From positions 62,001-126,000 of the forward strand of contig WSYJ01000005.1 in NCBI GenBank assembly GCA_020186115.1: a stretch of 64,000 nt of DNA, in the 5' to 3' direction. Below are positions 23,097-58,654 of the stretch, in pieces. How positions within the stretch are numbered: the stretch's first letter is position 1; every line of letters begins with the position of its first letter. Source of the stretch: Histomonas meleagridis (lineage: Eukaryota > Parabasalia > Tritrichomonadida > Dientamoebidae). The notes under the pieces were generated by a model. That model saw only the letters and a program-made list of their open reading frames with translations. It was not told the DNA's origin and searched no databases. The translations under genes and the position numbers were made by a program.

Positions 23097-24431
23097 ATGA
23101 CTGAAAGCACACAAACACTTGAATCAGAAAATGAAGCAAATAATACATCAATCAAAAGCCAATCTATATATATGCAAAAGTTGATTTCTTTAGAACAGAT
23201 TATATTTAATCTTACAGAAAAAAACTTTGAAATTTCTGTTGCAAAAACAATGAATTTATTTGATAAAGATTTTCCTTTTACATTTAATTATTGTATAATT
23301 GTTTTAATTTATTCAGCATTTTCATCTCAAAGAGAATCAATCCAAACATATTTAAATTATTTGCAAGAAATTCAAACACAAGAAGAATCAATTCTTCACA
23401 ACAATCCAAAAATTATTGAAATTTTTACTAATTATATATCAGAATTTAATACACAAGAGACATATTATATCATTGAAAAAATGATTGAAAACGAATTAAT
23501 TAATATAAATATTACCAATAACTTTCATACCAATTATTTTTCACATTATAAAACTGAAGAAGAAAACAAGAAAAACGATTCTAAAGATCCATTAAATAAA
23601 GAATTTAAAAATAATTACGAAAAATTATCAAAAAATGATTGGGAACTTCATAAGCAATTAGTTAAAGAAGGAGTTAATCCGAATGAAATATCAAAAATCA
23701 TTCGAAATGATGATATAGAGAAACTTCAAGAAATATCATCACAAGAAGATTTCGATTTTAATCAAACCATTAAACCATCACTTTATGAAAGATATTCATT
23801 TATTAACAAAAAAAATGTTACATTAATTGATTTTGCTGCATTTTTTGGAGCAATTCAATGTTTTAAATATTTATTAATGAATAATGCAAAAGTCGAAAAC
23901 ACAGGTAAATATGCAATTGCAGGTGGAAATCTTGAAATTATTTATTTATGTGAACAAAATCATTCGACATTTGACGATGTTTATGAAATAGCAATTAAAT
24001 TTCATCGAAATGATATCTTTAAATATTTTTATGAAAACAAAATCGAAAAACTAGATCAAAACAATCAACAACATTTATTAACATATGTAATTACAAACAA
24101 AATTCCATTTAAAAATTTTGGATATTATATTAGTAATACACAAACATTAACTGATATTAAATTCCAAGAACAAATTTATCATTGCATTAATATTGGTAAT
24201 TATGAAATTCTTTCATTTTTAGAAGAAGAAATCAAATTCGATGAATATTTAATTAATGTATCAGCGAAAACAGGTAATTTATATCTTGTCGAATATTTTC
24301 TTGAGCATAATCAAATTCCGAAAAACATTTTAGTTTTCGCATCAGAATCAGGAAATATTGAACTTGTTCAGTATATTATTAAACAAGAAGGGATTGATAT
24401 TAATGCTAAAAATATTAATTGTTTGTATTAA
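23097..24431 (+). CDS. DUF3447-ankyrin protein, head ORF
   Basis: A 444-residue open frame of the trichomonad DUF3447/ankyrin family. The N-terminal 150 residues are a helical domain. The conserved block DWELHKQLVKEGVNPNEISKIIRNDDIEKLQEISS is followed by SLYERYSFINKKNVTLIDFAAFFG, degenerate ankyrin repeats, and one canonical repeat (ASESGNIELVQYIIKQEGIDINAKN). The ORF stops 10 codons after that repeat, exactly where the first spacer of a 170-bp module array begins. Six further ankyrin units follow to 25422 in shifting frames, so this ORF is probably only the first coding segment of a longer gene. Its partners and function are unknown; ankyrin repeats mediate protein binding. Confidence 0.8.
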   Translation: MTESTQTLESENEANNTSIKSQSIYMQKLISLEQIIFNLTEKNFEISVAKTMNLFDKDFPFTFNYCIIVLIYSAFSSQRESIQTYLNYLQEIQTQEESILHNNPKIIEIFTNYISEFNTQETYYIIEKMIENELININITNNFHTNYFSHYKTEEENKKNDSKDPLNKEFKNNYEKLSKNDWELHKQLVKEGVNPNEISKIIRNDDIEKLQEISSQEDFDFNQTIKPSLYERYSFINKKNVTLIDFAAFFGAIQCFKYLLMNNAKVENTGKYAIAGGNLEIIYLCEQNHSTFDDVYEIAIKFHRNDIFKYFYENKIEKLDQNNQQHLLTYVITNKIPFKNFGYYISNTQTLTDIKFQEQIYHCINIGNYEILSFLEEEIKFDEYLINVSAKTGNLYLVEYFLEHNQIPKNILVFASESGNIELVQYIIKQEGIDINAKNINCLY

Positions 24432-25422
24432 AATATGTTTTAATGTTTTGATATTTTAAAATAATGTTTGGAATTTTGTTGAATTATTTAGAACATCATT
24501 AATGATAGCAACTATAAAAGGTTATATAGGAATTGTTCAATTTCTTATAGAACAAGAAGGTATTAACTTTAAATTAAAAGATATTCATATGTATTATAAA
24601 AAATTGACATTATAATTTCTGGGTTTAAATCAGAAATTTGGAATTTAATTGTTATATTTGATACCGCACTTTTATTGGCATCGCGAAATGATCAAACTGA
24701 AATATTTAAAATACTTCTTAAAAAAGAAGAAAACATTAATAATAAAAACATTGTTTTTGTTTATTTTATGTTAGTTACAATAAATTGATATTTTAAATTT
24801 GTATTAGGTAATTATTTTCAATATTTAAATCGGTATTATATTTTGAAACAGAAAAAAATCACATCGGAATGGTTAAATTACTTCTTGAACAAGAAAAAAT
24901 TGATATTAATGTTAAAGATGTTTATTCGTTTTATTTAATATTTGTTTTAATAATTTTGGATTTCAAAATAATATTTGGAAATTATTTAAAATATTTAAAA
25001 CAGCACTTATGTGGGCATCATTAAAAGGTAGTACAGAAATACCCAAATTACTTCTTAACAAGAAGGAATTGATATTAATGCTAAAGATATTTATTTTTAT
25101 TATTTAATATTTATTTTAATAATTTTATATTTCAAAATAATATTTGGAAATTATCTAAAATATTTAATACAGCACTTATATTAGCATCTGAAAAAGGTCA
25201 TATAGAAATAGTCAAATTACTTCTTGAACAAGAAGGAATTGATATTAATGCTAAAGATATTTATTTTTATTATTTAATATTTATTTTAATAATTTTATAT
25301 TTCAAAATAATATTTGGAAATTATCTAAAATATTTGATACAGCACTTATTCGAGCATCCTCAAATGGTCACAAAGAAATAATTGAATTATTCTCAAATCT
25401 AATAATTATAGAAATGATTTAA
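24422..25422 (+). repeat. ankyrin module array A (6 units, about 170-bp period)
   Basis: Successive ankyrin units, taken at the codon equivalent to Thr of TALM, start at 24493, 24663, 24830, 25000, 25169 and 25339, so the intervals are 170, 167, 170, 169 and 170 bp. Each unit is 99 nt (33 residues, ending GIDINAKDIY-like), followed by an AT-rich spacer of about 71 nt. The unit at 25000 has a 1-nt deletion in its LLLEQEG stretch (about 25057) that breaks its frame. The last unit runs into an in-frame TAA at 25420-25422. The first spacer ends TTATTTAG before the next unit, a usable AG acceptor, but most others do not. Confidence 0.85.
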
Positions 25423-26752: not shown

Positions 26753-27838
26753 ATGTTTTTTGTTTTATTCAATGTATTTAGCATTATGCGCTTTAGAAAA
26801 TTTTATTGTACGTTAAAAATGTACGTTAAGAATCAAATGCTAGACAGTATGGTAGAAATTCGTGCCATAATTCATTATTTATGGCTAAAAGGCAATGACA
26901 ACAAAAGCATACATCAAGAAGTAATCGACACATATGGTCCTAAAGCGATAACTCTCAGAACAGTTCAGAAGAGAACAAAAGAATTCAAAGAAGGAAGAAA
27001 TACGTTAAATGATCTTCCAAGAAGTGGTAGACCCCAAAAACTAGATTTAATACCTATTCAAAATTATTTGTTGCACAATTTATACGCAAGCACTCGCAAA
27101 ATTGCTAAAGACATTGGGGAAAACAAAAATACTGTCAAAAAGGTTTTGATCAAGCATTTATCAATGAAAAAGGTCAATTTTAAATGGCTGCCATATGCTC
27201 TTACCGAACAAATGAAAGCAAAAAGAGTTGAAATTGCCAGCATCTTACTGGAATTCCTTACAAATGCATGGGAAAGGAAGCTTGCAAAAATATTCACTCA
27301 AGATGAGACATGGATCTACTTTAAAAATGGAAGAGATTCAATGTGGATGGAAGCCGGTGCACAAATACCAACAAAACCAAGGCAAACAATTGGGTCAAAG
27401 AAAGCGATGATATCAGTAATATGGGGAATCAATGGAATAAAATCAATCACCATGCTTACTCAAGGCAGTAAGTCCAACAAAAAGTTTTTATCCAATTGTG
27501 TGCTCGAAAAGTTGAACAAAAAAATTCGAACAAAAGGGACATATCTACACATGGACAACGCAAAACCGCACAATGTACCAGAAAAAGCAAGAGAATTAAA
27601 AATTAGATAACTTGATCATCCCCCTTATTCACCGGATATAGCTTGTTCTGACTTCTTTCTATTCGGCTACCTTAAGAAATTATTAGAGGGAATGGAATTC
27701 AGCAACGAGAATGAGCTTTTTGACAAAGTCCAAGAAATATTAACTTCAATACCAAAATCAATATTTAAAAATGCATATAATGAATGGATGAATAGGCTCT
27801 TTGCAGTAATCGAGACACATGGAGAATACATTCATTAA
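26753..27838 (+). pseudogene. mariner transposase with one in-frame stop
   Basis: The frame 26753-27838 encodes a mariner transposase. There is an N-terminal paired helix-turn-helix region (LPRSGRPQKL linker, then STRKIAKDIGENKNTVKKVL) and the catalytic domain: first Asp in FTQDETWIYF, second in HMDNAKPHN. A TAA at 27608-27610 interrupts it after ELKIR. Beyond the stop the same frame continues with HPPYSPDIACSDFFLFGYLK, which carries the third Asp, and ends at TAA 27836-27838. The stop removes the third catalytic residue, so this copy should be inactive unless the stop is read through. Likely true starts are the Met codons at 26837 or 26849. Confidence 0.9.
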
Positions 27839-41304: not shown

Positions 41305-41913
41305 AGAATCTTTCCCATAAATTTGTTTTTGGTATGAAAAGTGTCATTTATTCCACTTTTTCATAATGGTTTTGTGGAACGAATTCAAATTTATAAATTG
41401 AATGTAATTGTCTGTAGACATTCGAAAATTCCGGGATAATCAAACGATATTATACTCGTTATTTTCGATTGCACAATAAAACAAATGAATATATATTTTA
41501 AATGAATCATCGATTTTATTATTTATGGATTAATTATATAAATAATCAAATTTTTCTTTCAAAAAAATTAAAATATATTTTTGTTACACTCAATCTCAAA
41601 TTCTTTACACACAAGCAAAGACAATATGTTGAGTCAATACAAATATATTTCTGATGCGTACTTGCCTTTAAGAAATAGTACCACATCTTTCCTAAAAATG
41701 AAAAGAAATTTTTTTACATCTTATAATAATTCGAAGATTTTCATCAATTTACCATTGCATTTCGTCATGAATACACAATCCATTTCGATTAGGAGTCTTA
41801 TTGGAAAATATTTTTATCTAATTTCTGATTTTTTAAAAATTTTTTCTTTACTTTTTATCAAAATAATTTTTTATTTCAATAAAGTAATTCATAATTTACA
41901 TAAAAAGGAAAAA
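41305..41913. other. intergenic and in-frame upstream extension
   Basis: Contains the VPS13 3' end and promoter of the BspA-like gene. From 41581 the frame is open in phase with that gene, but it encodes AT-rich, low-complexity sequence before the signal peptide; I treat it as leader. Confidence 0.45.
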
Positions 41914-44900
41914 ATGAAATGTAAATTCATTTTTCTTTCGATTATTCTCTTTTTTGTGCAATCAAGTGAAATATTTAATTCTACTACACAAACACTTACT
42001 GTAAATACTTATGATGAATATTTAGAAAGGAGTTCATATAAAAGTCAAATAATATATATTATAATTAATGATGGTGTTGATGAAATCGAAGATTATGCTT
42101 TTTTCAAGTGGTCATCACTAATTTCGATTGAAATTGGTGACTCAGTTACTTCAATTCAAGGTTATGGATTTTATTACTGCACTAATTTAGAAAAAGTTAT
42201 CATTGGAGAAAATGTTAAATTAATTGATAATTATGCTTTTATTTACTGTTCAAATTTAGCAACACTTATCATTGGAAAAAGCGTAAAAACAATTGGAAAT
42301 TATGCATTTGAAAAATGTTCATCATTAAAAAATTTCACAATTCCATATTTAGTTACATCAATTGGAACTTCGACATTTGAGTCATGTACTAAATTGGAAA
42401 CAATTATCATTGGAGAAAATGTGAAAAAAATTGATAATTTCGGATTTAGATATTGTTCTTCGTTGAAAAATATTACAATTCCAAAATTAGTGTCTGAAAT
42501 AGAATCAACTGCTCTTATAGGATGCATTAGTCTCGAATTTATAAATGTTTCTAATGAAAATGGTTATTATTCTGATAATGATGGAATCCTTTATAATAAG
42601 GATTTCACAATAATTGTATGTTATCCAGCAGGTATTTCTTCTCAATCATTTGAAATACCAAATTTGGTAACATCTATTGGAAATAATGCATTTTATTCAT
42701 GCTCATCCTTAATAAATATTACAATTCCTAATACAGTCACATCAATTGGAGATGAAGCATTTCGTTTATGTACTAATTTATCCACATTAATCATTGGTGA
42801 AAATGTTAAAACAATTGAAGATTTTGCATTTTATTCTTGTTCATCATTGGTGAGTATTATAATACCAAATTCTGTTTCAACAATTGGTGATTATGCATTT
42901 GATTTGTGTTCTAAATTAGAAACAGTTATTATTGGAGAAAATGTAACAACAATTGGAAAAAATGCATTCTACAAATGTTCAATAAGGAATATTATAATCC
43001 CAAATTTAGTTACATCAATAGATGATTATACATTTTATTCGTGTGATAAATTAGAAACAATTACCATTGGAGAAAATGTAAATATGATTGGTACCAGCGC
43101 ATTTTATTTATGTTCATCATTAAAAAATATTACAATTCCAAATTTAGTTACAACAATAAAAGATAGAACATTTTATTCATGTACTAGTTTAGAATCAATA
43201 ATCATTGGAGAAAATGTGAGAACAATTGGAAACGATGTATTTCGATATTGTTCTTCTTTAAAAAATATTATAATTCCAAATTTAGTTACATCAATCGGTA
43301 ATAATTTATGTGAAAAATGTATTATGTTAGAAAAAGTTAATATTGGAGAAAATGTGACAACAATTGGAGATTCTGCATTTTTTTCATGTTCATCATTAAA
43401 AAATATTATAATTCCAAATTTAGTTACATCAATTGGAACTTCGACATTTGAGTCATGTACTAAATTAGAAACCATTATCATTGGAGAAAATGTAACATCA
43501 ATTGGTGAATATGCAATTCGATCATGTTCATCATTAATAAATGTTACAATTTCAAATTCAGTTACAATAATTTGTGCATATGCATTTGCATTATGTAAAT
43601 CACTAATAAGTTTTAAAATTCCAAATTTAGTTACGATAATTAATACATCTGTATTTAATCAATGTTCATCATTGACAAATATAACAATTCCAAACTTAGT
43701 TATAACGATTGATGTTTGGGCATTTCAATCATGTGCCAACTTGACCACAGTTATTATTGGTGAAAATGTGACAACAATTGGGAGTTCTGCATTTCAATCA
43801 TGTACTAACTTAGTAACAATTATCTTTGGTGAAAATATAGCAACGATTGGAAGTTCTGCATTTAGTTATTGTTCATCATTAAAAAATATAACAATTCCAA
43901 GCACAGTTACATCAATTGGAATTTATGCATTTAGTTCATGTACTAACTTAGTATCTATTACCTATGGTAAAAATATAACAATGATTGGAAGTTCTGCATT
44001 TAGATCATGTTCTTCATTAAAAAACATAACAATTCCAAACATGATTACAACAATCCAAGATTATACATTTCAATCTTGTACTAACTTGACTAATATTATC
44101 ATTGGAGAAAATGTAACAACAATTTGTTATTCTGCATTTAGATCATATTCTTCTTTAAGAAATATTATAATTCCAAATTCAGTAATATTAATTGAAAGTT
44201 ATGCATTTAAATTATGTGATAACCTCGAAACAGTTATCATTGGAGAGAATGTAAAAACAATTGAAAGTTATGCATTTCGATATTGTTCATCATTAAAAAA
44301 TATTACAATTCCAAATTCAGTTACTTCAATCGAAAGTTATGCATTTAATTCATGTAATAACTTAGAAACAGTTATAATTGGAGAAAATGTAACAACAATT
44401 GGAAGTTATTCGTTTGAAAATTGTACTGATCTCAAATGTATTTATTTTACTGGCATTGAACCACCAAAATCTATAAGTTCAAGTGCATTCAATGATGTCC
44501 CAACGAAATATATTATGACATCATATTTGTATCCAAGTGCAACATTCGGTTCACTCACAGTAACCCATAAATTGGTTGATGAATGTGATATATCTCTATG
44601 GCCAACTCTTACGTTTACAGAATCAAATACATTTACACAAAGCTATACATATTCAAATACATTTTCACAATCAAATACGTATACTATATCAAATACTTGT
44701 CCAAATACATTTACTAAATCAAGCGTGTTTACTAGATCAAATGTGTTTACAAACACATATATGTTTTCACACTCAAATACTTTTACAAGTTCAAAACAAT
44801 TCGGTGCAACATTTATTAATACATTAATTTTTACGCATTCAATCACACAAACAATAATTCAAAAATCTATTTTCTCGAATACTGTAACTATTTCTATATT

Positions 44901-45288
44901 TGATTCATCATATTATTATACAGAAACTTTATTTATTTATTATAAATATATAACTGTTAAATATTACTCATATATATCATATTATACAGGATTTTATACA
45001 ATTTTACAACAAAATGAAACGAATAATATTGTAAACCAAACGAATATGATTATTATCATTTGTGTTTGTATTGCGATAATTATTATTGTCTCAATCATTA
45101 TAATATTACTCATTCGTAAAAATAAACTAAATAAAGAAGAAAGTTTTGATGAAGAAAGCATAAAAGAAGAAAATATACTTGATGAAGAAACACCATCAAT
45201 GAATAATATTAATTTTATTAATTTGAATGATATTGAAGAAGATCCATTTGCAAAGGATTTCAAAGAAAATAATTTTGCAAAGATTTAA
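41914..45288 (+). CDS. large BspA-like leucine-rich surface protein
   Basis: An 1124-residue type I membrane protein. The ATG at 41914 starts a clear signal peptide (MKCKFIFLSIILFFVQSSE). Some 35-40 TpLRR units of 23 residues follow, with the consensus SSLKNITIPNLVTSIGxxAFxxC, interrupted once by the family-typical non-LRR DNDGILYNKDF segment. A stalk of TFTxSNTF hexapeptides (about 44600-44800) precedes the membrane helix (IIIICVCIAIIIIVSIIIILL). The cytosolic tail of about 60 residues has an acidic EEDPFAKDFK motif near its end, shared with the protein at 46049. BspA-like proteins bind host or extracellular-matrix partners in other trichomonads; the ligand here is unknown. Confidence 0.92.
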   Translation: MKCKFIFLSIILFFVQSSEIFNSTTQTLTVNTYDEYLERSSYKSQIIYIIINDGVDEIEDYAFFKWSSLISIEIGDSVTSIQGYGFYYCTNLEKVIIGENVKLIDNYAFIYCSNLATLIIGKSVKTIGNYAFEKCSSLKNFTIPYLVTSIGTSTFESCTKLETIIIGENVKKIDNFGFRYCSSLKNITIPKLVSEIESTALIGCISLEFINVSNENGYYSDNDGILYNKDFTIIVCYPAGISSQSFEIPNLVTSIGNNAFYSCSSLINITIPNTVTSIGDEAFRLCTNLSTLIIGENVKTIEDFAFYSCSSLVSIIIPNSVSTIGDYAFDLCSKLETVIIGENVTTIGKNAFYKCSIRNIIIPNLVTSIDDYTFYSCDKLETITIGENVNMIGTSAFYLCSSLKNITIPNLVTTIKDRTFYSCTSLESIIIGENVRTIGNDVFRYCSSLKNIIIPNLVTSIGNNLCEKCIMLEKVNIGENVTTIGDSAFFSCSSLKNIIIPNLVTSIGTSTFESCTKLETIIIGENVTSIGEYAIRSCSSLINVTISNSVTIICAYAFALCKSLISFKIPNLVTIINTSVFNQCSSLTNITIPNLVITIDVWAFQSCANLTTVIIGENVTTIGSSAFQSCTNLVTIIFGENIATIGSSAFSYCSSLKNITIPSTVTSIGIYAFSSCTNLVSITYGKNITMIGSSAFRSCSSLKNITIPNMITTIQDYTFQSCTNLTNIIIGENVTTICYSAFRSYSSLRNIIIPNSVILIESYAFKLCDNLETVIIGENVKTIESYAFRYCSSLKNITIPNSVTSIESYAFNSCNNLETVIIGENVTTIGSYSFENCTDLKCIYFTGIEPPKSISSSAFNDVPTKYIMTSYLYPSATFGSLTVTHKLVDECDISLWPTLTFTESNTFTQSYTYSNTFSQSNTYTISNTCPNTFTKSSVFTRSNVFTNTYMFSHSNTFTSSKQFGATFINTLIFTHSITQTIIQKSIFSNTVTISIFDSSYYYTETLFIYYKYITVKYYSYISYYTGFYTILQQNETNNIVNQTNMIIIICVCIAIIIIVSIIIILLIRKNKLNKEESFDEESIKEENILDEETPSMNNINFINLNDIEEDPFAKDFKENNFAKI

Positions 45289-46048: not shown

Positions 46049-47989
46049 TTAGATATAAATGTGATTATCGAAAACGTCATCTTTAAAATCATTTGCAAAC
46101 GGATCTTCTTCTTGTATTTGCATAATATTAACATTTGTCAATCCATCGCTTATGGGTTTTCTTTCATTTTCACTATTTGATTCAACTTCTTCCAAATTAG
46201 AAAATTTTTGTTTGTGTTTTCGATGATGAATAATAAAAATAGTAATTAAACATATAATTATAATGATTATAACTACTGCGCACACAATTATTATTATATT
46301 TGTTTGATTGTCAGTTGCAATGTTTTCGTTATCCTCACTTAATGCAAAATAAAAATCTGAATAATAACTATATAATGTTGAATATTGGATAACTGTGTAA
46401 TTATAAAAAATGAATTCTGAATATGTGAAATAGATTTGTGAATTATTAAATGTAAATAACATTGAATGTGATATCATAGAATGAAGAGTAAATGTCTCCG
46501 TTATAATGATGGTTTGCTTCAAAACAAGTGAATGTGTTAAATATGGATTTGTGCTAAATGAATTTGATTGTGGATATGAATTTGTTTGTGAATATGTATT
46601 TGACTGTGTAAATGAATTTGTTTGTGAATATGTATTTGACTGTGTAAATGAATTTGTTTGTGAATATGTATTTGACTGTGTAAATGAATTTGTTTGTGAA
46701 TATGTATTTGACTGTGTAAATGAATTTGTTTGTGAATATGTATTTGACTGTGTAAATGAATTTGTTTGTGAATATGTATTTGACTGTGTAAATGAATTTG
46801 TTTGTGAATATGTATTTGACTGTGTAAATGAATTTGTTTGTGAATATGTATTCGATTGAGTAAATGAATTTGTCTGTGTAAATGAATTTGTTTGTGAAAA
46901 TGTATTTGTTGGTCCGTTTATATTAACAGCATAGAGAACTTTTTTCCCTGGTGTTAACTCATTTGAAGAAAATAAAAAATTGAATGTTTGGCCATTTAAA
47001 ATTGCTTTAAAATGAATTGTACCATGTGTTTGTGGAATGACATACAGATCATAAACCCTTGTTCCTGTTTCAATATCTTCTGTATGAACCGAGTCTGTAA
47101 TATCAAAATCATTAATTACCTCGGAATTCGAATCAACAGTTGCTTCGCACGTGAAGATATTAAATGTACCACTGTGTCGCAAACCACTTAAATAAAATTT
47201 CCAATTCGATGAAATTTGGTCAGGGCTGAATCCACCTATAAGTCTAATAGTGATTGAAAAAATTGACATTTTACAATTAAAATCAGCAAGAGGATATGGG
47301 TTATCATATGAACATTGTATTCCATTTGAAGAAATAATGTTTAATTGTTTCTGTACTTCAGCTGTTTGTATTACATTGGTACGAATATTAAAATCACCAT
47401 CCGAATTTACATTTGATGAATATGGAGTATATGCAGTAACTGTTAGAACTTCTGTTGTGCTCTCAAAATTGATATTTGTTTGTATTTCGTTGGAGAGATA
47501 AATGCACTCCACATTTCTCCACATATCACTGCTAATTGAATTGCTTATACTAACACCAAACCGATCCCCAGTATTGAGAATATCTGCATTTTCAACCATG
47601 ATAATAATGGTTTGATCCAATGCAAGTATTTTTTGATTATTTTTATTTTGATTTAAAATTATAGCACTCACTGAATTGTTATTCTCGCTTTTTGGTATAT
47701 GAATTGTAATTTTGAATTGCTCAGCTTCATCATTATCGGGAAGCAGAGGAGTAGAAATAGGTAAGTTTGTTGTTAATGCCTCTTTGTTTTGGTACAAGGT
47801 ATCTATTTCAATATTCTTAATTATCTTTTTTTCTATGTAATTGGAATAATTTGTGAGATTTGTTTTCATACAACTAGAACATACAGAATCATTATAAGTT
47901 TCTTTGTGAAGCTTGAAACTTATGATGAAGATGATTTGCACAAAATAATACAACAAAAAACAAATGAAATAATTTAATGGTTTACTCAT
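46049..47989 (-). CDS. stalk-type surface membrane protein with non-LRR ectodomain
   Basis: A 646-residue type I membrane protein, using the second ATG (MSKPLNYFICFLLYYFV) as start because it opens a signal anchor. The ectodomain (about 60-350) is beta-rich, with Ig-like or fimbrillin-like strands (GTIHFKAILNGQTFNFLF, TPGKKVLYAVNI) and no LRR. It is followed by eight 12-residue repeats NSFTQSNTYSQT, a membrane helix (IIIIVCAVVIIIIIICLITIF) and a tail with EEDPFANDFK. Stalk, helix and tail match the BspA-like protein at 41914, so ectodomains appear to be swapped on a common anchoring module. I do not recognise the ectodomain family. Confidence 0.85.
   Translation of the reverse strand: MSKPLNYFICFLLYYFVQIIFIISFKLHKETYNDSVCSSCMKTNLTNYSNYIEKKIIKNIEIDTLYQNKEALTTNLPISTPLLPDNDEAEQFKITIHIPKSENNNSVSAIILNQNKNNQKILALDQTIIIMVENADILNTGDRFGVSISNSISSDMWRNVECIYLSNEIQTNINFESTTEVLTVTAYTPYSSNVNSDGDFNIRTNVIQTAEVQKQLNIISSNGIQCSYDNPYPLADFNCKMSIFSITIRLIGGFSPDQISSNWKFYLSGLRHSGTFNIFTCEATVDSNSEVINDFDITDSVHTEDIETGTRVYDLYVIPQTHGTIHFKAILNGQTFNFLFSSNELTPGKKVLYAVNINGPTNTFSQTNSFTQTNSFTQSNTYSQTNSFTQSNTYSQTNSFTQSNTYSQTNSFTQSNTYSQTNSFTQSNTYSQTNSFTQSNTYSQTNSFTQSNTYSQTNSFTQSNTYSQTNSYPQSNSFSTNPYLTHSLVLKQTIIITETFTLHSMISHSMLFTFNNSQIYFTYSEFIFYNYTVIQYSTLYSYYSDFYFALSEDNENIATDNQTNIIIIVCAVVIIIIIICLITIFIIHHRKHKQKFSNLEEVESNSENERKPISDGLTNVNIMQIQEEDPFANDFKDDVFDNHIYI
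46578..46865 (-). repeat. 36-bp tandem repeat, 8 copies, nearly identical
   Basis: Each unit encodes NSFTQSNTYSQT on the minus strand. The central copies are identical at the nucleotide level; only the outermost copy near 46850 differs by a few bases. Confidence 0.95.
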
Positions 47990-48126: not shown

Positions 48127-49305
48127 ATGAATCATTCTAACCAAAAAAATAATCTTATTTCATTATTAAAAGACATCGAATCAATTGTCTTTGACTTAAA
48201 TGAAGATAATATTGAGCCAAAAGTTGAAAGTATTATGAATTTATTTGATATTAATTTACCATATTCATATAATTTGATCATTTCACGTTTAATATATAGA
48301 TCTTTTATAGTTCAAAAGAAAGATATCAGAATATATTTATTATTCATAAAGGCAATCAAGTCAAAAGAAGAATCAATTCAAGAAAATTGTGATATAATTG
48401 AAGTTTTTACACATTTTCTTCTTCAATTAAATTCGCAAGAATCCTTTTATTTTTTAGAAAACATGATTGAAGAAAAATACATTTCTTCTAACGTAATTCA
48501 ATCAAAAAATACATTATATTTTGCCCATTATTTTACTGAATCTAAAATCAATCAATTGAAAAATTTTGAAACACCAGTTTTAAATTTCTTTAAAAATATT
48601 GAAGATCTTAAAAAAGACAACTGGAAACTACACAAACAACTTATTAAAGAAGGTGTTAATCCTATATCTGTCATTAAAGCAATTCGTAACGATGATATTG
48701 ATAAACTTCAAGAAATATCATCACAAGATGATTTCAATTATAATCAAATTATTGAACCATCAATTTATGAATCGTTTTCATTTATTAATGATAGCGATGT
48801 TTCGTTAATTCATTATGCAGCATTTTTCGGATCGATTAAATGTTTTAAATATTTACTTATGAATGGTGCCAAATTAAATAATGTAAATAAATATGCAGTA
48901 GCAGGTGGGAATATAGAGATAATTCATTTGTGTGAACAAAATAATCGTAATTTTAAACAAGTTCATGAAATTGCTTTAGAATTTCATAGGAATAATCTCT
49001 TTGATTATTTTTATAAGAAAAAAGTGATTCAAGCTAAAGAACTTACTCACTTAGAAATCAAATGTATTAAAAATGATAATTATTCTTTGTTTGTTTCATT
49101 ATTAGAAAAGAAAAAGTCAAAATTTGATTTAAATATCTTTAGTGAAACAGCAACAACAGGTAATATTTTTCTCATGAAATATTTCATGTATGATTGTAAA
49201 CTTCCAAAAAATATTTTAGTTTGTGCATCAGATTCAGGAAATTTAGAGTTAATGAAATTACTTCTTGAACAAAAAGGAATTGATATTAACTATGGAAGCA
49301 TTTGA
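48127..49305 (+). CDS. DUF3447-ankyrin protein, head ORF
   Basis: A 392-residue paralogue of the 23097 gene. It has an N-terminal helical domain and the block DNWKLHKQLIKEGVNP...IRNDDIDKLQEISSQDDF. SFINDSDVSLIHYAAFFGSIKCFKYLLMNGAKL and a final canonical ankyrin repeat (SDSGNLELMKLLLEQKGIDIN) follow. The ORF stops with YGSI at the first spacer of array B. Fifteen more ankyrin units follow downstream, the last ending in a normal stop at 51764-51766. If the spacers are removed from RNA, the full protein would have roughly 500 additional residues of ankyrin repeats. No signal peptide or membrane segment is present. Confidence 0.82.
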   Translation: MNHSNQKNNLISLLKDIESIVFDLNEDNIEPKVESIMNLFDINLPYSYNLIISRLIYRSFIVQKKDIRIYLLFIKAIKSKEESIQENCDIIEVFTHFLLQLNSQESFYFLENMIEEKYISSNVIQSKNTLYFAHYFTESKINQLKNFETPVLNFFKNIEDLKKDNWKLHKQLIKEGVNPISVIKAIRNDDIDKLQEISSQDDFNYNQIIEPSIYESFSFINDSDVSLIHYAAFFGSIKCFKYLLMNGAKLNNVNKYAVAGGNIEIIHLCEQNNRNFKQVHEIALEFHRNNLFDYFYKKKVIQAKELTHLEIKCIKNDNYSLFVSLLEKKKSKFDLNIFSETATTGNIFLMKYFMYDCKLPKNILVCASDSGNLELMKLLLEQKGIDINYGSI

Positions 49306-51766
49306 TTTAATATTTTCGAATTGAAAATTTTTATTTGGAATTTACTTAAATTAATTTATACTCCACTTATAATTGCATCTAAATATGGTAATATTGGAAT
49401 GGTTAAATTACTTCTTGAACAAGAAGGAATTAATGTTAATGCAATGAATATTTATTTAATTTGTTTAAAGTATTTTAATATTATATGATGTTTTTTTATT
49501 TAATTTGGTGAAACAGCTTTAATTATGGCATCTAAAAATGGTAATATTGAAGTGGAAAAGCTACTTTTAGATAATGATGAGACTGAGATTGATGAAAAAG
49601 ATATTATTTTGTTTTGTTCAAAGTTTATAAAAATATTATATTATTATTTTATACTTCATGTTTTTTTGATTTATTTGGTAAAAATGCATTAATGGTTGCT
49701 TCTGAACATGGGCATATAGAAATAGTTAAATTGCTTCTTGAGCAAAATTTAATTGATATCAATGATCCTGACGTATTTTTTTATTATTTGATTTCATGAT
49801 TTCGACTTAATATTTGGAAGTTATTTAAAATATTTCAAACAGCTCTTATTATTGCATCAGAAAAAGGTAATTTAGAGATAGTTAAATTACTTCTAGAGCA
49901 AAATGGAATTGATATCAATAAAAAAGATAATTATTTATTTCATTTAAAACTTATTTAAAAATCTTTGGATTTCAAAATCATTTTTAAGATTTATTGTTAT
50001 GACCTCGAACAGCTCTTATATTAGCATCTTGGTTTGGTCATACAGAAATAGTTAAATTACTTCTTGAACAAGAAGGAATTGATATTAATACTAAAGATAT
50101 TTATTTGTTTTATTTAGAATTTATTTTGATAATTTTATATTTCAAAATAATATTTGGAAATTATTTAAATTATATAAAACAGCACTTATTAGAGCATCTG
50201 AAAATGGTCATATAGAAATAGTCAAATTACTTCTTGAACAAGAAGGAATTGATATTAATGCTAAAGATATTAATTTATTTTATTTAAAATTTATTTTGAT
50301 AATTTGATGTTTCAAGATAATATTTGGAAATTGTTTAAATGAATTCAAACAGCACTTATTATAGCATTCGATTATGAAAACTTGGAAATAGTTAAATTAC
50401 TTCTTAATCATGAAGGAATTGATATTAATATTAAAGATACTTATTTATTTTATTTAAAAGTTATTTTAATAATTTGATATATCATAATAATATTTGGGAG
50501 ATATTTAAGTTATTTAATGCAGCACTTATGAAAGCAGCACATAAAGGACAAATAGAAATCATTAATTTAATTCTTAATAATAAGACATTGGATATTAATA
50601 TTAAAAATATTTATTTGTTTTATTTGAAAATTATTTTAATAATTTGATATTTCAAAATAATATTTGGAAATAATTTAAATTATTTGAAACATCACTTATG
50701 ATAGCAATTCAAAATGGACATACAAAAATAGTTAAATTACTTCTTGAACAAGAAGGAATTGATATTAATGCTAAAGATATTTATTTGTTTTATTTGATAT
50801 TTATTTTAATAATTTTATATTTTAAAATAATATTTGGAAATTATTTAAATTATTTTGGACAGCACTTATGTTTGCATCTAGAAATGGTCATACAGAAATA
50901 GTTAAATTACTTCTTGAACAAGAAGGAATTGATATTAATGCTAAAAATATTTATTTGTTTTATTTTGTGTTTGTTTTAATGATTTTGTGTTTCAAAATAA
51001 TTTTTGTAAATTGTTTAAATTAATTCAAACAGCACTTATTATAGCATTCGATTATGAAAACTTGGAAATAGCTAAATTACTTCTTGAACAAGAAGGAATT
51101 GATATTAATGCTCAAGCTATTTATTTGTTTTATTTAATAACAATTTTTCAAAATAATATTTGGAAATTATTTAAATTATTTAATACAGCACTTATTTTAG
51201 CATCTTCATGTGGTCATACAGAAATAGTTAAATTACTTCTAGAGCAAAATGGAATTGATATCAATAAAAAAGATAATTATTTATTTCATTTAAAACTTAT
51301 TTAAAAATCTTTGGATTTCAAAATCATTTTTAAGATTTATTTTTATGATTTCGAACAGCTCTTATATTAGCATCTTGGTTTGGTTATACAGAAATAGTTA
51401 AATTACTTCTTGAACAAGAAGGAATTAATATTAATGCTAAAGATATTTATTTGTTATATTTGATATTTATTTTAATAATTTTATATTTCAAAATAATATT
51501 TGGAAATTATTTAAATTGTTTAATACAGCACTTATTTTAGCATCTTCAAATGGTCATTCAGAAATAGTTAAATTACTTCTTGAACAAAAAGGAATTGATA
51601 TTAATGCTAAAGATATTAATTTATTTTATTTAAAATTTATTTTAATTATTTATTTCAATTTCAAAATAATATTTGGAAATTATTAAAAATATTTGAGACA
51701 GCACTTATGATTGCATCTAGAAATGGTTATACAGAAATAGTCAAATTATTTCATAAGCACGAATGA
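49306..51766 (+). repeat. ankyrin module array B (15 units, 170-bp period)
   Basis: Units begin (Thr codon of TALM or equivalent) at 49360, 49513, 49683, 49839, 50009, 50179, 50349, 50519, 50689, 50859, 51029, 51185, 51355, 51525 and 51698. Seven consecutive intervals from 49839 to 51029 are exactly 170 bp; others are 153, 156, 170 or 173. Coding part 99 nt, spacer normally 71 nt. About half of the spacers start GTTTTATTT, the rest ATTTTATTT or similar; their ends read TTTAA, TTTCA or TTTGA before ACAGC, rarely TTTAG. All fifteen 33-residue units are open, and the last ends FHKHE and a TGA. Confidence 0.9.
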
Positions 51767-54109: not shown

Positions 54110-57100
54110 TTATATTCCATAAAACATTGGAATTAAATCATCATATCCCTTTTCAACTATCATTTGAAGTGCTGTATGAAATAATTAAAAAAAATTTCAA
54201 ACAAATTTAAAAAATTTCAATTCTTATAATAAAACTTTATATAATAAGTAGATATATTTTCAATACTCGTATCAATATCTTTATGTTTTAGTAATAACAT
54301 AATAATCTCATAATGATCATTCAAAATAGCAGACATTAAAGCTGTACAAAATGGAACTAATAGTTTCCATAAATTATTTTGAAATTTCTAGAAATAAATG
54401 AAACATATATCAATTATAGTATTTAAATATCAACAGCATTTACATCAATTCCATCTTGTTCAAGCAACAATTTGACTATCTCAGTGTAACCAAAATCAGA
54501 TGCATGCCAAAGTGACGTGCAAATTATTTTGAATAATTTCCTACTATTATATTGGAACCCAATCATATTAAAAGAAATTATAAAAACAACAAAAAAATAT
54601 TTTTCACATTAATATCAATTCCTTCTTGCTCAAGAAGTAATTTAACTATTTCAATGTAGCCATTTCCAACAGCATATATAAGTGCAGTATTAAAATATTT
54701 AAATAAATTCCTCATATTATTTTGAAATATATTATTATTATATGAAATCTCAAATATGCTCAATAATTTTTTTCTTTAGCATTAATATCAATTCCTTCTT
54801 GTTCAAGAAGTAATTTAACTATATCTGTATAACCTTTTCCAGATGCCCAAATAAGTGCTGTATTAAATATTTTAGATAATTTCCAAATATTATTTTGAAT
54901 TTTCAAATTATTAAAATAAATATTAAATAAAATAAATAAATATCTTTAGCATTAATATCAATTCCTTCTTGTTCAAGAAGTAATTTGACTATTTCTGTAT
55001 GACCATTTTCAGTTGCATTCATAAGTGCTGTTTTATATAATTTAAATAATTTCCAAATATTATTTTGAAACATAAAATTATTAAAATACACAAGTTTTGC
55101 ATTAATGTATATATTATTTTCTTTAAGAATTGATGTTACAATTTCAATTACACCAGCACTACAAGCACTCATAAATTTGGCTTTAATATTTTGTAACCAA
55201 TATCAAGATAAAAATTAAAACATAAAATATTTAAAAGATATATTTTCAAAATACAAAATAAAGACATCTTGTGTTGAATTTCGATATTTTCATGTTCAAG
55301 AAATGACATAACAAAATCTATAATTTGATTTTGAATTGATTTCATTGAAGGAATTATAAAAGCATGAAATTAAATCGAAAAATAAAATATCATTCATATT
55401 ACCATTGTTTTTCTTATCATTAAGTAATTTTAAAATAAAATCAAAAATCTTTTGCGATTTGATCATTGTTAAACTATTTAATGAATAAGAACATTGAAAA
55501 AAAGAAAAATAAATCATTCATTTTGTTATTAATATTTGTTTCAAGAAACAATTTTACTAAATTCGTGATATTACTATCTGATACATAGTCAAACAATTTA
55601 TCAAACAAAAATAAATGAAATAAATATATTTTTCACTGGATTTATATATTTTAAATTCAAGTAACTTTTTTATCACATTTAAAAATCCGTATGTTACAGC
55701 ATTTAATAATATTACATCAAATAAATTTAAGAAATCCCATAAGTTAATTAGAAATTAAAAGTCATTAAAAAATATATTATCTTCTAGTTGAATTTCTTCC
55801 TGTTCAATGAACTGTTCAAATGCATTCAGTATTCCGACGTAAAAATCTTGCATAAGGTGAGATTGAAATTAAATATAGAAACTTCATATCTATCATAAAA
55901 ATAAAAAATCACCATAAAAAACCATTTAAAATATATATTAATCTTTGAATTATTATGATTTTTTTCCTTTTCAGTTAAAATTTTTACAATTTGGAAATAG
56001 TTATTATTGTATGAAATCATAAGTGCCGTATTAAATAATATTAATAATTTCCAAATATCATTTTAAGATTTCATATAGTTTAAATAAATATTAAACAAAA
56101 TATATAAATATCTTGAGCATTAAGATCAATTCCTTCTTTCTCAATAAGCACTTTGACTACTTCAATTCCACCATATTCAGCTGCAGATATAAGTGCTGTT
56201 TTAAAATATTTAAACAATTTCCAAATATCATTTTAAGATTTCATATAGTTTAAATAAATATTAAACAAAACACACAAATATCTTGAGCATTAATGTCAAT
56301 TCCTTTTTTCCCAATAAGCAGTTTAACTATATCAGTTTTACCATATTCAGCTGCAGATATAAGTGCTGTTTTAAAATATTTAAACAATTTCCAAATATCA
56401 TTTTAAGATTTCATATAGTTTAAATAAATATTAAACAAAACACACAAAAATCTTGAGCATTAATGTCAATTCCTTCTTTTTCAATAAGCAGTTTAACTAT
56501 ATCAGTTTTACCATATTCTGCTAAAACCATAAGAATTGTATGAAATGGTTTAAATATGTTCCAAATATTATTTTGAGACAGAAAATGATTAAAACAAAAA
56601 TTATATAAAAGAAATAACTGTTTTTGACATTAATATCAATTCCTTTTTGCTTAAGAAGCAATCTAAGTATTTCCATACGATCTTTTTGAGCTGAAATCAT
56701 AAGTACTGTATTAAATAATTGAAATATATTCCAAATATTATAATGAAATCATAAATCATTAAAACATACAATAATTAAAGTGGATAAATATCTTTTGCCT
56801 CAAGATCAATCCCTTTATGTTCAAGAAGCAGTTTTACTATTTTTGTATAATCATAAATAGTCGCTAGCATAAGTTCAGTACGAAATGAATTATGAAAATT
56901 CCAAATATTATATTGAAAATAAAAATTATTAAAATAAATGCTAAATAAAATAAATAAATATCTTTTACATTGATATCAATATCTTTATGTTTGAGTAGTA
57001 CTTCAACAATTTTTGTGTAACCTTTACTTATTGCATAATTTAATGCATTTTTCAATAATCGAGAAAAATTTCTTATATTATTTTAGAAATTTGTGAATTT

Positions 57101-57385
57101 TGAAAAAATATATTTTTCATTAACATCAATACCTTCTTTTTCGAGAAGCATATTTACAATAGTTGTGTATCCTTTGATGCATGCGCATATAAGAGCTGTT
57201 TTAAATATGTTAGGAAAATTCCTTTAATAATAAATAAAAAAAATTAAATAAAACATATAAATATTTTTAATATTTACATTTATTTCATCATGTTCAAGAA
57301 GTAACTTTACAATATTGATTAAATTATACTTTACTGCATATAGAAGAGGTATTATCAATATTATATTTTGACACCAAATTTTATT
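54110..57385 (-). repeat. ankyrin module array C (about 20 units, 170-bp period)
   Basis: Belongs to the head ORF at 57386-58654. Unit starts on the minus strand include 57352, 57199, 57049, 56879, 56709, 56539, 56369, 56199 and 56029; the six intervals from 57049 to 56029 are each 170 bp. Toward the 3' end, 55031-54861 is 170, then 173, 170, 173 and 170 (54688, 54518, 54345, 54175). The terminal unit (TALQMIVEKGYDD...) ends in TAA at 54112-54110. The middle (55200-56000) is more diverged and I did not place every unit. Spacers conserve the layout of arrays A and B but have their own sequence. Confidence 0.85.
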
Positions 57386-58654
57386 CTAAAACATTAAATG
57401 ATGAATATAAAAATGGCTAAAATTAATATATATATCATTTTTCATAAGAAAAATAAATTTAATAAGTTCATGATTACATGACATAACTGAAAATAATAAA
57501 ATATAATTTGGAATATGATTGTTTTTAACAAAGTAATTAAAAATGAAAGTATTCCCAATTTTTAGTGATTCATATATGATATCATCACTAATTTGCATTC
57601 CTTCTTCATGCAAATATGAAAATATTTCGTAATTACTTGATTGAATACATTTCTTACCTAACTCTGTTAAATTAGAATTTTTTTCAAACTTGTTTTCATA
57701 AAGATATTTAAAGATATCATTTTGATGAAATTCAATTGCTGTTTCATATGCGCCTTCAAATGACGAATTATTTTGTTTACATAAATGAATGATTTCAAGG
57801 TTTCCTCCTGCAATTGCATATTTACCTGCATTAAATACATTTGCACCAGCTATAAGTAAATATCTAAAAATTTTAACTGCCGAAAAAAATGCTGCATAAT
57901 CAATTAATGTAACATTTTCTTGATTAATAAATGAATATCTTTCATACAGTGATGGCTTAATTGTTTGATTATAATCAAAATCATTTTCTGATGATATTTT
58001 TTGAAGTTTTTCGATTTCATCATTTCGAATTATTTTCGCGATTTTATTTGGATTAATTCCTTCTTTAATATATTCAGCATGAGCTCCATAGTCATATAAT
58101 TTTTCATTTTCATATAATGTATCAGTGTTCTCATTAACGCATTTAATTAAATTGATAACTTCTTGATAAAATAACTTTTTGATTTTTTTATTATAATTTC
58201 CATATTTTCTCTTAACTAAATAATATGGATTTCTTTTTGTAATATAATGTGCAAAATATATATTATTTTTATTAATGGCTATTTGAGGTGAAATAAGTTT
58301 GTTTACAATCATCATTTCAAGAAGATAATTTGATTCTTGTGTTTTTTCAAAAAATAATATAATTGAAAGTATTGATATTAAATTAGAATCAACATTATAT
58401 ATTTCTTTCTCTTTAATGTCAAGTTCATTTAAAAATCGAAAATATATTAAGAAATCTCTCCTACGTGATATATATGATCTATATATCAAATGACAAATTA
58501 AATAATTAAATGATACAGGATATTCAACATCAAATTTTTTAATTAAAATTTGGCTTATAATTTTATAATTATCCCAGTTCAAGTCTAGTACATTTTTTTG
58601 TATTTTAATAAGCCATTTGATCTCTTTCAGCTGAAGGTTTTTACCCCCAGCCAT
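57386..58654 (-). CDS. DUF3447-ankyrin protein, head ORF
   Basis: A 422-residue paralogue with the family blocks: N-terminal helices (WLIKIQKNVLDLNWDNY), KEGINPNKIAKIIRNDEIEKLQKISSENDF, SLYERYSFINQENVTLIDYAAFFSA and GKYAIAGGNLEIIHLCKQNNSSF, ending in ankyrin-like repeats and stopping at the first spacer of array C (DIYINFSHFY...). A basic insert (RNPYYLVKRKYGNYNKKIKK) in the middle is not in the paralogues. As in the other loci, the array downstream supplies many more repeats and a terminal stop. The start is 113 bp from the divergent exportin-like gene. Confidence 0.82.
   Translation of the reverse strand: MAGGKNLQLKEIKWLIKIQKNVLDLNWDNYKIISQILIKKFDVEYPVSFNYLICHLIYRSYISRRRDFLIYFRFLNELDIKEKEIYNVDSNLISILSIILFFEKTQESNYLLEMMIVNKLISPQIAINKNNIYFAHYITKRNPYYLVKRKYGNYNKKIKKLFYQEVINLIKCVNENTDTLYENEKLYDYGAHAEYIKEGINPNKIAKIIRNDEIEKLQKISSENDFDYNQTIKPSLYERYSFINQENVTLIDYAAFFSAVKIFRYLLIAGANVFNAGKYAIAGGNLEIIHLCKQNNSSFEGAYETAIEFHQNDIFKYLYENKFEKNSNLTELGKKCIQSSNYEIFSYLHEEGMQISDDIIYESLKIGNTFIFNYFVKNNHIPNYILLFSVMSCNHELIKFIFLMKNDIYINFSHFYIHHLMF

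What the first reader, a model, noticed from the sequence alone, without database searches (positions are those of the whole stretch)
49306..51766. Ankyrin repeats split into 99-nt coding modules separated by fixed 71-nt spacers (170-bp period)
Fifteen units each encode one complete 33-residue ankyrin repeat and are spaced exactly 170 bp apart over seven consecutive intervals. Since 170 is not a multiple of 3, neighbouring repeats are in different frames and cannot be translated together, yet all fifteen are open. In AT-rich DNA stops should appear quickly without selection. The boundary phases (one nt before the Thr codon, two nt after the last Tyr/Asn codon) make every module a symmetrical exon. 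About half of the spacers start with GT but very few end with AG, and the trichomonad signals GTATGT and ACTAACACACAG are absent. This fits a set of non-canonical introns, or a cassette array not translated in place.
Basis: partly seen in the sequence, partly recalled or inferred. Interest (0 to 1): 0.92.

Follow-up and report, generated by a model that had tools for sequence, protein, structure and literature searches.

The report
Single-codon exons between 17-base introns
In the poultry parasite Histomonas, genes for ankyrin-repeat proteins appear to be chopped into exons as small as one codon by dozens of 17-base inserts that lack the usual splice signals, which points to a kind of gene-message editing not described before, although no RNA has yet been examined.

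Summary
The window lies in the Histomonas meleagridis genome. Each 170-bp unit is a 90-nt ankyrin exon followed by four single-codon (3-nt) exons, each preceded by a 17-nt non-coding element: D1|17|x2|17|x3|17|Gly|17|x5|Thr. So 34 codons (102 nt) + 4 x 17 nt = 170. In 157 distinct 80-nt spacers the four predicted codons never read stop (38 expected from base composition); three are sharp peaks of variability and the fourth is Gly in 136 of 157. Read in order they give the D-x-x-G-x-T hairpin seen in intronless ankyrin genes of the same genome. Spacer lengths change mainly by 17, 3 or 20. Other ankyrin loci carry one to nine elements per hairpin; the window gene has 56. The elements (RTTT...ATTT) lack GT-AG ends and any conserved fold; conventional introns here use GTATGT...CTAACACATAG. 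The best explanation is removal of fixed-length, non-canonical 17-nt introns from RNA, building hypervariable ankyrin proteins. The coding architecture is strongly supported by sequence statistics; removal from RNA, and the machinery, are inferred. No transcript evidence was available.

The parts
48127..49299 (+). head exon: 391 codons, DUF3447/ankyrin region, ending with the first array-type module (49210-49299)
   Evidence: ORF 48127-49305; Pfam Ank_2/Ank_4/Ank above and DUF3447 just below the curated cut-off; module 0
49300..49359 (+). spacer 1, 60 nt: [17]R[17]G[17]Y
   Evidence: parse
49360..49449 (+). ankyrin exon 1
49450..49512 (+). spacer 2, 63 nt: [17]K[17]D[17]GE
49513..49602 (+). 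ankyrin exon 2
49603..49682 (+). spacer 3, 80 nt: [17]K[17]I[17]V[17]K
49683..49772 (+). ankyrin exon 3
49773..49838 (+). spacer 4, 66 nt: [17]DFM[17]G[17]Q
49839..49928 (+). ankyrin exon 4
49929..50008 (+). spacer 5, 80 nt: [17]K[17]W[17]K[17]R
50009..50098 (+). ankyrin exon 5
50099..50178 (+). spacer 6, 80 nt, worked example: elements 50099-50115, 50119-50135, 50139-50155, 50159-50175; single-codon exons 50116-50118 (R), 50136-50138 (Y), 50156-50158 (G), 50176-50178 (K)
50179..50268 (+). ankyrin exon 6
50269..50348 (+). spacer 7, 80 nt: [17]K[17]D[17]G[17]Q
50349..50438 (+). ankyrin exon 7
50439..50518 (+). spacer 8, 80 nt: [17]K[17]D[17]G[17]N
50519..50608 (+). ankyrin exon 8
50609..50688 (+). 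spacer 9, 80 nt: [17]E[17]D[17]G[17]E
50689..50778 (+). ankyrin exon 9
50779..50858 (+). spacer 10, 80 nt: [17]D[17]Y[17]G[17]W
50859..50948 (+). ankyrin exon 10
50949..51028 (+). spacer 11, 80 nt: [17]C[17]C[17]V[17]Q
51029..51118 (+). ankyrin exon 11
51119..51184 (+). spacer 12, 66 nt: [17]NNN[17]G[17]N (the N's are Asn codons)
51185..51274 (+). ankyrin exon 12
51275..51354 (+). spacer 13, 80 nt: [17]K[17]W[17]K[17]R
51355..51444 (+). ankyrin exon 13
51445..51524 (+). spacer 14, 80 nt: [17]D[17]Y[17]G[17]N
51525..51614 (+). ankyrin exon 14
51615..51697 (+). spacer 15, 83 nt: [17]K[17]IS[17]G[17]E
51698..51766 (+). terminal exon: partial ankyrin repeat with its own C-terminal end and stop TGA
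23097..25422 (+). second gene of the same kind: head ORF 23097-24431 and array of 7 modules from 24324; two of its six spacers parse with one 16-nt element and one (24753-24829) parses poorly
55940..58654 (-). third gene: head ORF 57386-58654 (-) and array of 9 modules between 57352 and 55940; end of gene not determined
54256..55181 (-). further array of 6 modules on the - strand downstream of the third; a separate array or the continuation of the same gene

Best explanation
The head ORF, the 90-nt ankyrin exons and the single hairpin codons between them form one gene of Histomonas meleagridis. Between consecutive ankyrin repeats the pre-mRNA carries mostly four (range in the sample one to nine) intervening sequences of fixed length 17 nt, each between two codons (phase 0), with ends RUUU...AUUU. 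They are removed from the RNA before translation, so that D1, x2, x3, Gly4, x5 and Thr6 of the ankyrin beta-hairpin become contiguous. The product of the window gene would be about 895 residues (391 head, 62 hairpin codons, 14 x 30, 22 terminal; arithmetic, the protein was not assembled). Shown by sequence: the codon/17-nt alternation, the protein-level selection on the single codons, and the hypervariability of x2, x3 and x5 and of module positions 5 and 8. Inferred: that removal happens in RNA; that the fixed length acts as a ruler or as a very reduced splicing signal; that hairpin loops grow and shrink by whole 20-nt (codon + 17 nt) units; and that the proteins form a diverse binding repertoire.
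For: (1) In 157 distinct 80-nt spacers the triplets at offsets 17, 37, 57 and 77 have 0 stops (expected 8.6, 14.7, 0.9, 13.7 by column shuffling; none of 5000 shuffles was as low for 17, 37, 77). Offsets 17, 37 and 77 are the local minima of conservation (0.69, 0.61, 0.58, against about 0.9 over most of the 17-mers), and offset 57 is Gly in 136 of 157. Shifted one base left, offsets 16, 36 and 76 hold 124, 57 and 105 stops. (2) 28 contiguous hairpins in intronless ankyrin ORFs of the same genome read D(19/28)-x-x-G(18/28)-x-T(22/28), the same order. (3) Lengths: of 235 spacers, 211 parse with 17-nt elements only: 180 as 4x17 + 4 codons, the rest as 3x17+5 (9), 4x17+5 (9), 3x17+4 (7), 3x17+3 (5), 4x17+3 (1). 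In the 226 better parses there are 864 elements of 17 nt, 12 of 18 and 6 of 16. (4) Other loci: 17 of 20 usable spacers of L026, L027, L028, L032 are multiples of 20 nt (3 to 9 units), and phase 17 has 0 stops of 81 triplets (10.7 expected). (5) Ankyrin genes L034, L035, L038, L039, L043 have 1-3 elements per interrupted hairpin. (6) Three 153-bp intervals lack exactly one 17-mer and keep four hairpin codons (two in L018, one in L019). (7) At least 9 of 29 arrays have a terminal module with its own tail and stop.
Against: No transcript, cDNA or peptide was available; nothing here shows removal. The elements have no GT-AG or AT-AC ends, no trichomonad splice motif (GTATGT in 1 of 235 spacers, CACAG in 1 of 235) and no conserved fold (mean z +0.22 for 60 sampled spacers, -0.19 for the diverged ones). 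Removing 56 tiny introns from one RNA is without precedent as far as I know. Column shuffling assumes independent columns: offsets 11 and 45 (0 against 5.8 and 7.1), 12 (3 against 7.2) and 46 (2 against 10.2) also show low stop counts, within conserved stretches. The parser forbids stop codons and favours 17-mers, so parse counts are biased that way. 23 of 235 spacers need a 16- or 18-nt element (10 of them 81-nt spacers with one 18-mer) and one does not parse. Intervals are not independent: neighbouring units are recent duplicates. A scan for 17-nt excisions joining long frames showed candidates only in ankyrin loci and did not single out the length 17, so there is no sign of the elements outside this family.
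Confidence: 0.82

Rival explanations
1. Translational bypassing: the mRNA keeps the 17-mers and the ribosome hops over each one.
For: Fixed short length, no splice signals, position between codons; bypassed inserts (byps) are known from yeast mitochondria and T4 gene 60 (recalled; one search was a listing only).
Against: Known hops use matched take-off and landing codons (recalled); here the flanking codons are peaks of variability. No conserved structure. 56 successive hops would be needed for the window gene.
Confidence: 0.08
2. Decaying or non-translated array (pseudogene remnant or donor cassettes for gene conversion); only the head ORF is a gene.
For: Spacers break the frame in genomic DNA; a deposited H. 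meleagridis relative of the head ends soon after the hairpin region (P0016); the genome paper reports at most one intron per gene (PMC8529796, passages); some arrays carry internal stops (L008, L011).
Against: 0 stops at four codons per spacer in 157 spacers while three of them vary strongly; Gly4 kept; lengths change in codon- and 17-mer-sized steps; terminal tails in at least 9 of 29 arrays. A donor cassette would still need the 17-mers removed.
Confidence: 0.05
3. One 71-nt (or 68-80-nt) intron per repeat.
For: One removal per repeat is simpler; it would restore a frame.
Against: The codons inside the spacer avoid stops and carry the ankyrin hairpin pattern; without them the repeat lacks three residues; 17-nt and 20-nt steps in length are unexplained.
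Confidence: 0.03
4. DNA-level elimination: an expressed genome copy lacks the 17-mers.
For: Would explain the absence of splice signals.
Against: No such process is known to me in parabasalids (recalled). No spacer-free copy of one of these arrays was seen in the loci read; a related head gene, L040, has contiguous repeats without 17-mers, but with different repeat sequences.
Confidence: 0.02

Closest known systems
Trichomonad spliceosomal introns, including type B short introns (T. vaginalis 23-25 nt, T. stableri 23-28 nt; PMC12316389, passages)
   Same: Short, T-rich, in a parabasalid; type B ends are more variable than type A; U6 snRNA and conventional introns exist in this genome.
   Different: Those keep GT/AG and a branch site fused to the 3' motif; the 17-mers have neither, are nearly uniform in length, and occur up to nine per hairpin between single codons.
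Ultrashort spliceosomal introns of Stentor (15 nt) and Bigelowiella natans (18 nt) (as cited in PMC12316389)
   Same: Comparable size.
   Different: Those are spliceosomal introns with ordinary ends (recalled); I know of none with fixed 17-nt length, non-canonical ends and 3-nt exons.
Nonconventional introns of euglenids and diplonemids (PMC6221363 abstract, PMC4770533 start of abstract in a listing)
   Same: Non-canonical borders, unknown removal machinery, coexisting with conventional introns.
   Different: Those form a stable structure joining the ends; no structure was found here. Unrelated lineage.
Byps and other translational bypass elements (recalled; listing)
   Same: Short inserts inside coding sequence.
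   Different: No matched flanking codons, no hairpin, many per gene.
Designed and natural ankyrin repeats with variable hairpin positions (recalled)
   Same: The variable codons x2, x3 and x5 and module position 8 fall on hairpin and first-helix positions that are randomised in designed ankyrin proteins (recalled).
   Different: Here most hairpin residues have their own exon.

Membership tests
GT-AG spliceosomal intron of the trichomonad type | 5' GTATGT-like and 3' CTAACACAYAG-like motif | tested here: not met
   GTATGT in 1 of 235 spacers, CACAG in 1 of 235; conventional introns in kinases of this genome have both
GT-AG spliceosomal intron of the trichomonad type | Removed from mature RNA by the spliceosome | not testable with these tools
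   no RNA data; U6 snRNA candidate found (43.7 bits, gathering score 44), U1 not found
Nonconventional (euglenid-type) intron | Stable RNA structure bringing the intron ends together | tested here: not met
   mean z +0.22 (60 sampled spacers) and -0.19 (diverged spacers), folded as whole spacers; single 17-mers were not folded
Nonconventional (euglenid-type) intron | Non-canonical, variable borders | tested here: met
   RTTT...ATTT logo, no GT-AG
Translational bypass element | Matched take-off and landing codons | tested here: not met
   flanking codons are peaks of variability; the requirement itself is recalled
Ankyrin repeat protein | Ankyrin helix pairs with D-x-x-G-x-T hairpins | tested here: met
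   Pfam Ank_2/Ank_4/Ank above cut-off for the head; modules; hairpin order when the 17-mers are passed over
DUF3447 ankyrin family | PF11929 match above the curated cut-off | tested here: inconclusive
   window head 25.8 bits against 26.9 (just below); the two other heads of the window 35.1 and 34.8 bits (above)

The most novel reading that the evidence does not exclude
Histomonas meleagridis, and probably related parabasalids, has a second RNA-removal system that does not use GT-AG signals. It cuts thousands (extrapolated) of 17-nt elements by length, leaving single-codon exons, and a large ankyrin family uses it as a codon-cassette minisatellite (codon + 17 nt) to diversify the length and sequence of binding loops.
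Probability: 0.45. Interest if true: 0.98.

Novelty: categorically new. Interest (0 to 1): 0.95.

Why it matters
If confirmed, these would be among the shortest introns known, joined to exons of one codon, in a lineage regarded as intron-poor, and with none of the signals by which its own conventional introns are recognised. It would make testable how RNA can be cut accurately with almost no sequence signal, and would show a way to evolve protein loops one codon at a time. It also means that a large gene family of a poultry parasite is probably annotated far too short.

Tried and rejected
Single-intron models with boundaries at the Thr codon or at GT/AT...AC ends (U12-like): no invariant dinucleotide at both ends in 182 aligned units or in the 33 diverged spacers. 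In one search the 3'-anchored position labels are off by two for most rows, because the shortest spacer set the table length. Conserved RNA structure: not supported. Translation through the spacer: rejected, since the triplet at offset 49, in frame within the third 17-mer, is a stop in 129 of 157 spacers (TAA in 121). Canonical T. vaginalis 3' motif in this genome: 3 exact sites against 2 for the reversed control; the H. meleagridis form seen here ends ACATAG. U1 by Rfam: none. Relatives in viral contigs: none confirmed. A scan for 17-nt excisions joining long frames found 31 pairs, all in ankyrin loci, but lengths 11, 20, 23 and 29 give about as many, so the scan does not single out 17. Protein database: no H. 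meleagridis entry joining modules was recognised in the rows listed (68; best 120 of 299), and those searches were bounded by length.

Full report
WHERE IT IS. The window is G000:C5:62001-126000 of a 43.28-Mb assembly in 121 contigs. It is Histomonas meleagridis: a window protein is identical to a database protein whose longest contig is 457,256 bases, and an annotated H. meleagridis protein (P0016) is listed with the same longest contig; two other contig lengths (1,725,435 and 1,144,546) equal those of annotated H. meleagridis proteins; the published genome is 43 Mb (PMC8529796, passages seen). That paper says introns are scarce, 5.2-5.7% of genes having at most one; the genes were predicted with AUGUSTUS trained on a transcriptome.

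THE OBSERVATION. On the + strand, head ORF 48127-49305 (392 codons) contains ankyrin/DUF3447-like sequence and ends with an ankyrin module in frame. Fifteen further modules follow, with intervals 150,153,170,156,170x7,156,170,170,173. Three more arrays of the same kind lie in the window. In the window and 20 fetched loci there are 29 arrays with 267 modules, hence 238 intervals. A first census with a different seed gave 240 intervals, 182 of them 170. A genome search with P0003, a head protein of another species, scored 107 of 5499 candidates and gave 118 matching rows, 11 of them with stops inside; some heads give two rows.

THE KEY STEP. In the 170-bp units the 80 nt between the hairpin Asp/Asn codon and the next Thr codon looked like spacer, about 87% conserved on average. 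Three triplets stand out as variable, and with a fourth, GGA, they stand 20 nt apart. Read as codons at offsets 17, 37, 57 and 77 they never give a stop in 157 distinct spacers (181 in all); composition predicts 8.6, 14.7, 0.9 and 13.7. None of 5000 column shuffles was as low for offsets 17, 37 and 77. Their commonest residues are K/N/E/Y, Y/D/N/W/E, Gly (136 of 157) and K/N/R/D/E/Q. One base to the left (offsets 16, 36, 76) there are 124, 57 and 105 stops. Offsets 11, 12, 45 and 46 also show fewer stops than shuffling predicts, but they lie in conserved stretches, so the shuffle test alone is not unique; the combination of high variability and no stop is. The natural reading is D1 | 17 nt | x2 | 17 nt | x3 | 17 nt | Gly4 | 17 nt | x5 | Thr6, where D-x-x-G-x-T is the ankyrin beta-hairpin. 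In 28 contiguous hairpins of intronless ankyrin ORFs of the same genome the same order is seen: D in 19, G in 18, T in 22 of 28. Thus 34 codons (102 nt) plus 4 x 17 nt give exactly 170.

LENGTHS. Of the 238 intervals, 3 outside 120-180 bp were dropped, leaving 235 spacers. A parser that splits each spacer into codons and 16-18-nt elements (it forbids stop codons and prefers 17) reads 180 of the 235 as 4x17 + 4 codons. The others are 81 nt with one 18-mer (10), 66 = 3x17+5 codons (9), 83 = 4x17+5 (9), 63 = 3x17+4 (7), 60 = 3x17+3 (5), 77 = 4x17+3 (1), 13 more that need a 16- or 18-mer, and one that does not parse. In 226 parses above the score limit there are 864 elements of 17 nt, 12 of 18 and 6 of 16. 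Three of the 63-nt cases (two in L018, one in L019) look like the exact loss of one 17-mer with all four hairpin codons kept. In the window array all 15 spacers parse with 17-mers only, 56 in all; in the second gene of the window two of six spacers need a 16-mer and one parses poorly.

OTHER LOCI. L026, L027, L028 and L032 were not part of the count, although I had looked at them when forming the idea. Of 20 spacers with a recognisable start, 17 are multiples of 20 nt, from 3 to 9 units; at phase 17 there are 0 stops among 81 triplets (10.7 expected), with the largest number of different codons of any phase (19; next 18). Left out for lack of a listed start motif: three L032 intervals and also one L028 interval that one search had read poorly. 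Five ankyrin genes that are not 170-bp arrays (L034, L035, L038, L039, L043) have 11 interrupted hairpins that I examined. With a parser that rewards GG codons, 9 of the 11 parse with 17-mers only (1 to 3 per hairpin) and two need one 18-mer; a Gly codon appears in 7 of the 11; for L038, L039c and L043a the best-scoring parse puts the last element or the codons in an atypical place. A related head gene, L040, has contiguous repeats with no 17-mers between them.

THE ELEMENTS. The logo from 31 diverged spacers (124 elements) is R T T T ... A T T T: first base A 66%, G 21%; next three T 80-89%; last three T 76-87%. There is no GT-AG. Conventional introns of this genome were found as interruptions in kinases: 7 of 133 rows had stops inside and all seven were fetched. 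In L053, L054, L057 and L058 they run from GTATGT to CTAACACATAG and are 60, 60, 92 and 144 nt long; another of the same kind is visible in L059; L055 and L056 look alike in translation but were not resolved by the script. Among 235 array spacers GTATGT occurs once and CACAG once. The spacers fold no better than dinucleotide shuffles. A U6 snRNA is present just below the Rfam gathering score (43.7 against 44 bits), with an ACAGAGA box; U1 was not found.

WHY IT IS A GENE AND NOT A RELIC. The single codons are selected as codons. Module positions 5 and 8 and hairpin positions x2, x3 and x5 are far more variable than the spacer background, while Gly4 is kept. At least 9 of 29 arrays end in a module with its own C-terminal end and stop; others read on into a spacer and stop there or are ambiguous, and some of those probably have a further exon that the search missed. 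Some arrays (L008, L011) carry internal stops and may be decaying. The related heads from unnamed public contigs (P0001-P0015 and P0018, at 38-52% identity; P0016, P0017 and P0019 are annotated H. meleagridis) run to the hairpin Asp and stop or diverge soon after in 15 of 16 cases (all but P0008), so the arrangement is probably older than this species. This rests on protein sequences only; their DNA was not seen.

MECHANISM. Best: removal from RNA, phase 0, length-fixed, usually four times per hairpin in the 170-bp arrays; the machinery is unknown. A strongly reduced spliceosomal reaction (element centres often hold a TTAAT-like stretch) and a separate endonuclease/ligase route both remain possible. 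Translational bypass lacks its known requirements. No RNA evidence was available: the rows listed by protein-database searches showed no H. meleagridis protein that I recognised as joining modules (68 rows; best 120 of 299), which is expected if gene finders cannot model such introns.

LITERATURE. Searches for trichomonad introns, Histomonas with intron, Histomonas with ankyrin, very short introns, nonconventional introns and bypassing listed no paper whose title or start of abstract describes 17-nt introns or single-codon exons in parabasalids; full texts were mostly not read. PMC12316389 (abstract and passages) gives 23 nt as the shortest Trichomonas intron and cites 15 nt in Stentor and 18 nt in Bigelowiella. 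PMC6221363: abstract only.

Noticed in passing
L053, L054, L057, L058, L059 (kinase stretches of G000): Conventional introns of this genome use GTATGT...CTAACACATAG; four kinase paralogues (L053, L054, L057, L058) share the position just before the conserved LPF motif. T. vaginalis type ACTAACACACAG is nearly absent as an exact match (3 sites).
   Followed up: partly
G000:C78:376002-376739: A protein kinase match lies in an open frame reported as 22,955 codons long: a giant ORF.
   Followed up: no
L026, L027: Hairpins lengthened to 5-9 codons in some repeats by tandem copies of a 20-nt unit (codon + 17 nt), a coding minisatellite.
   Followed up: partly
window 41626-45288: Long ORF with 69/138-nt tandem repeats, of a BspA-like leucine-rich look (recalled, not searched).
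   Followed up: no
window 26753-27610: Mos1-type (mariner) transposase ORF next to the second ankyrin gene.
   Followed up: no
window 46558-46910: 36-bp tandem repeat, 9.8 copies at 94% match, inside ORF 46049-47989 (-).
   Followed up: no
L008 (+) and L011 (-): Paralogous arrays with internal stops and frameshifts, possibly decaying copies.
   Followed up: no
P0189, P0190: Long ankyrin/DUF3447 proteins named as from an alphaproteobacterium; possibly mis-binned parabasalid contigs (a guess).
   Followed up: no
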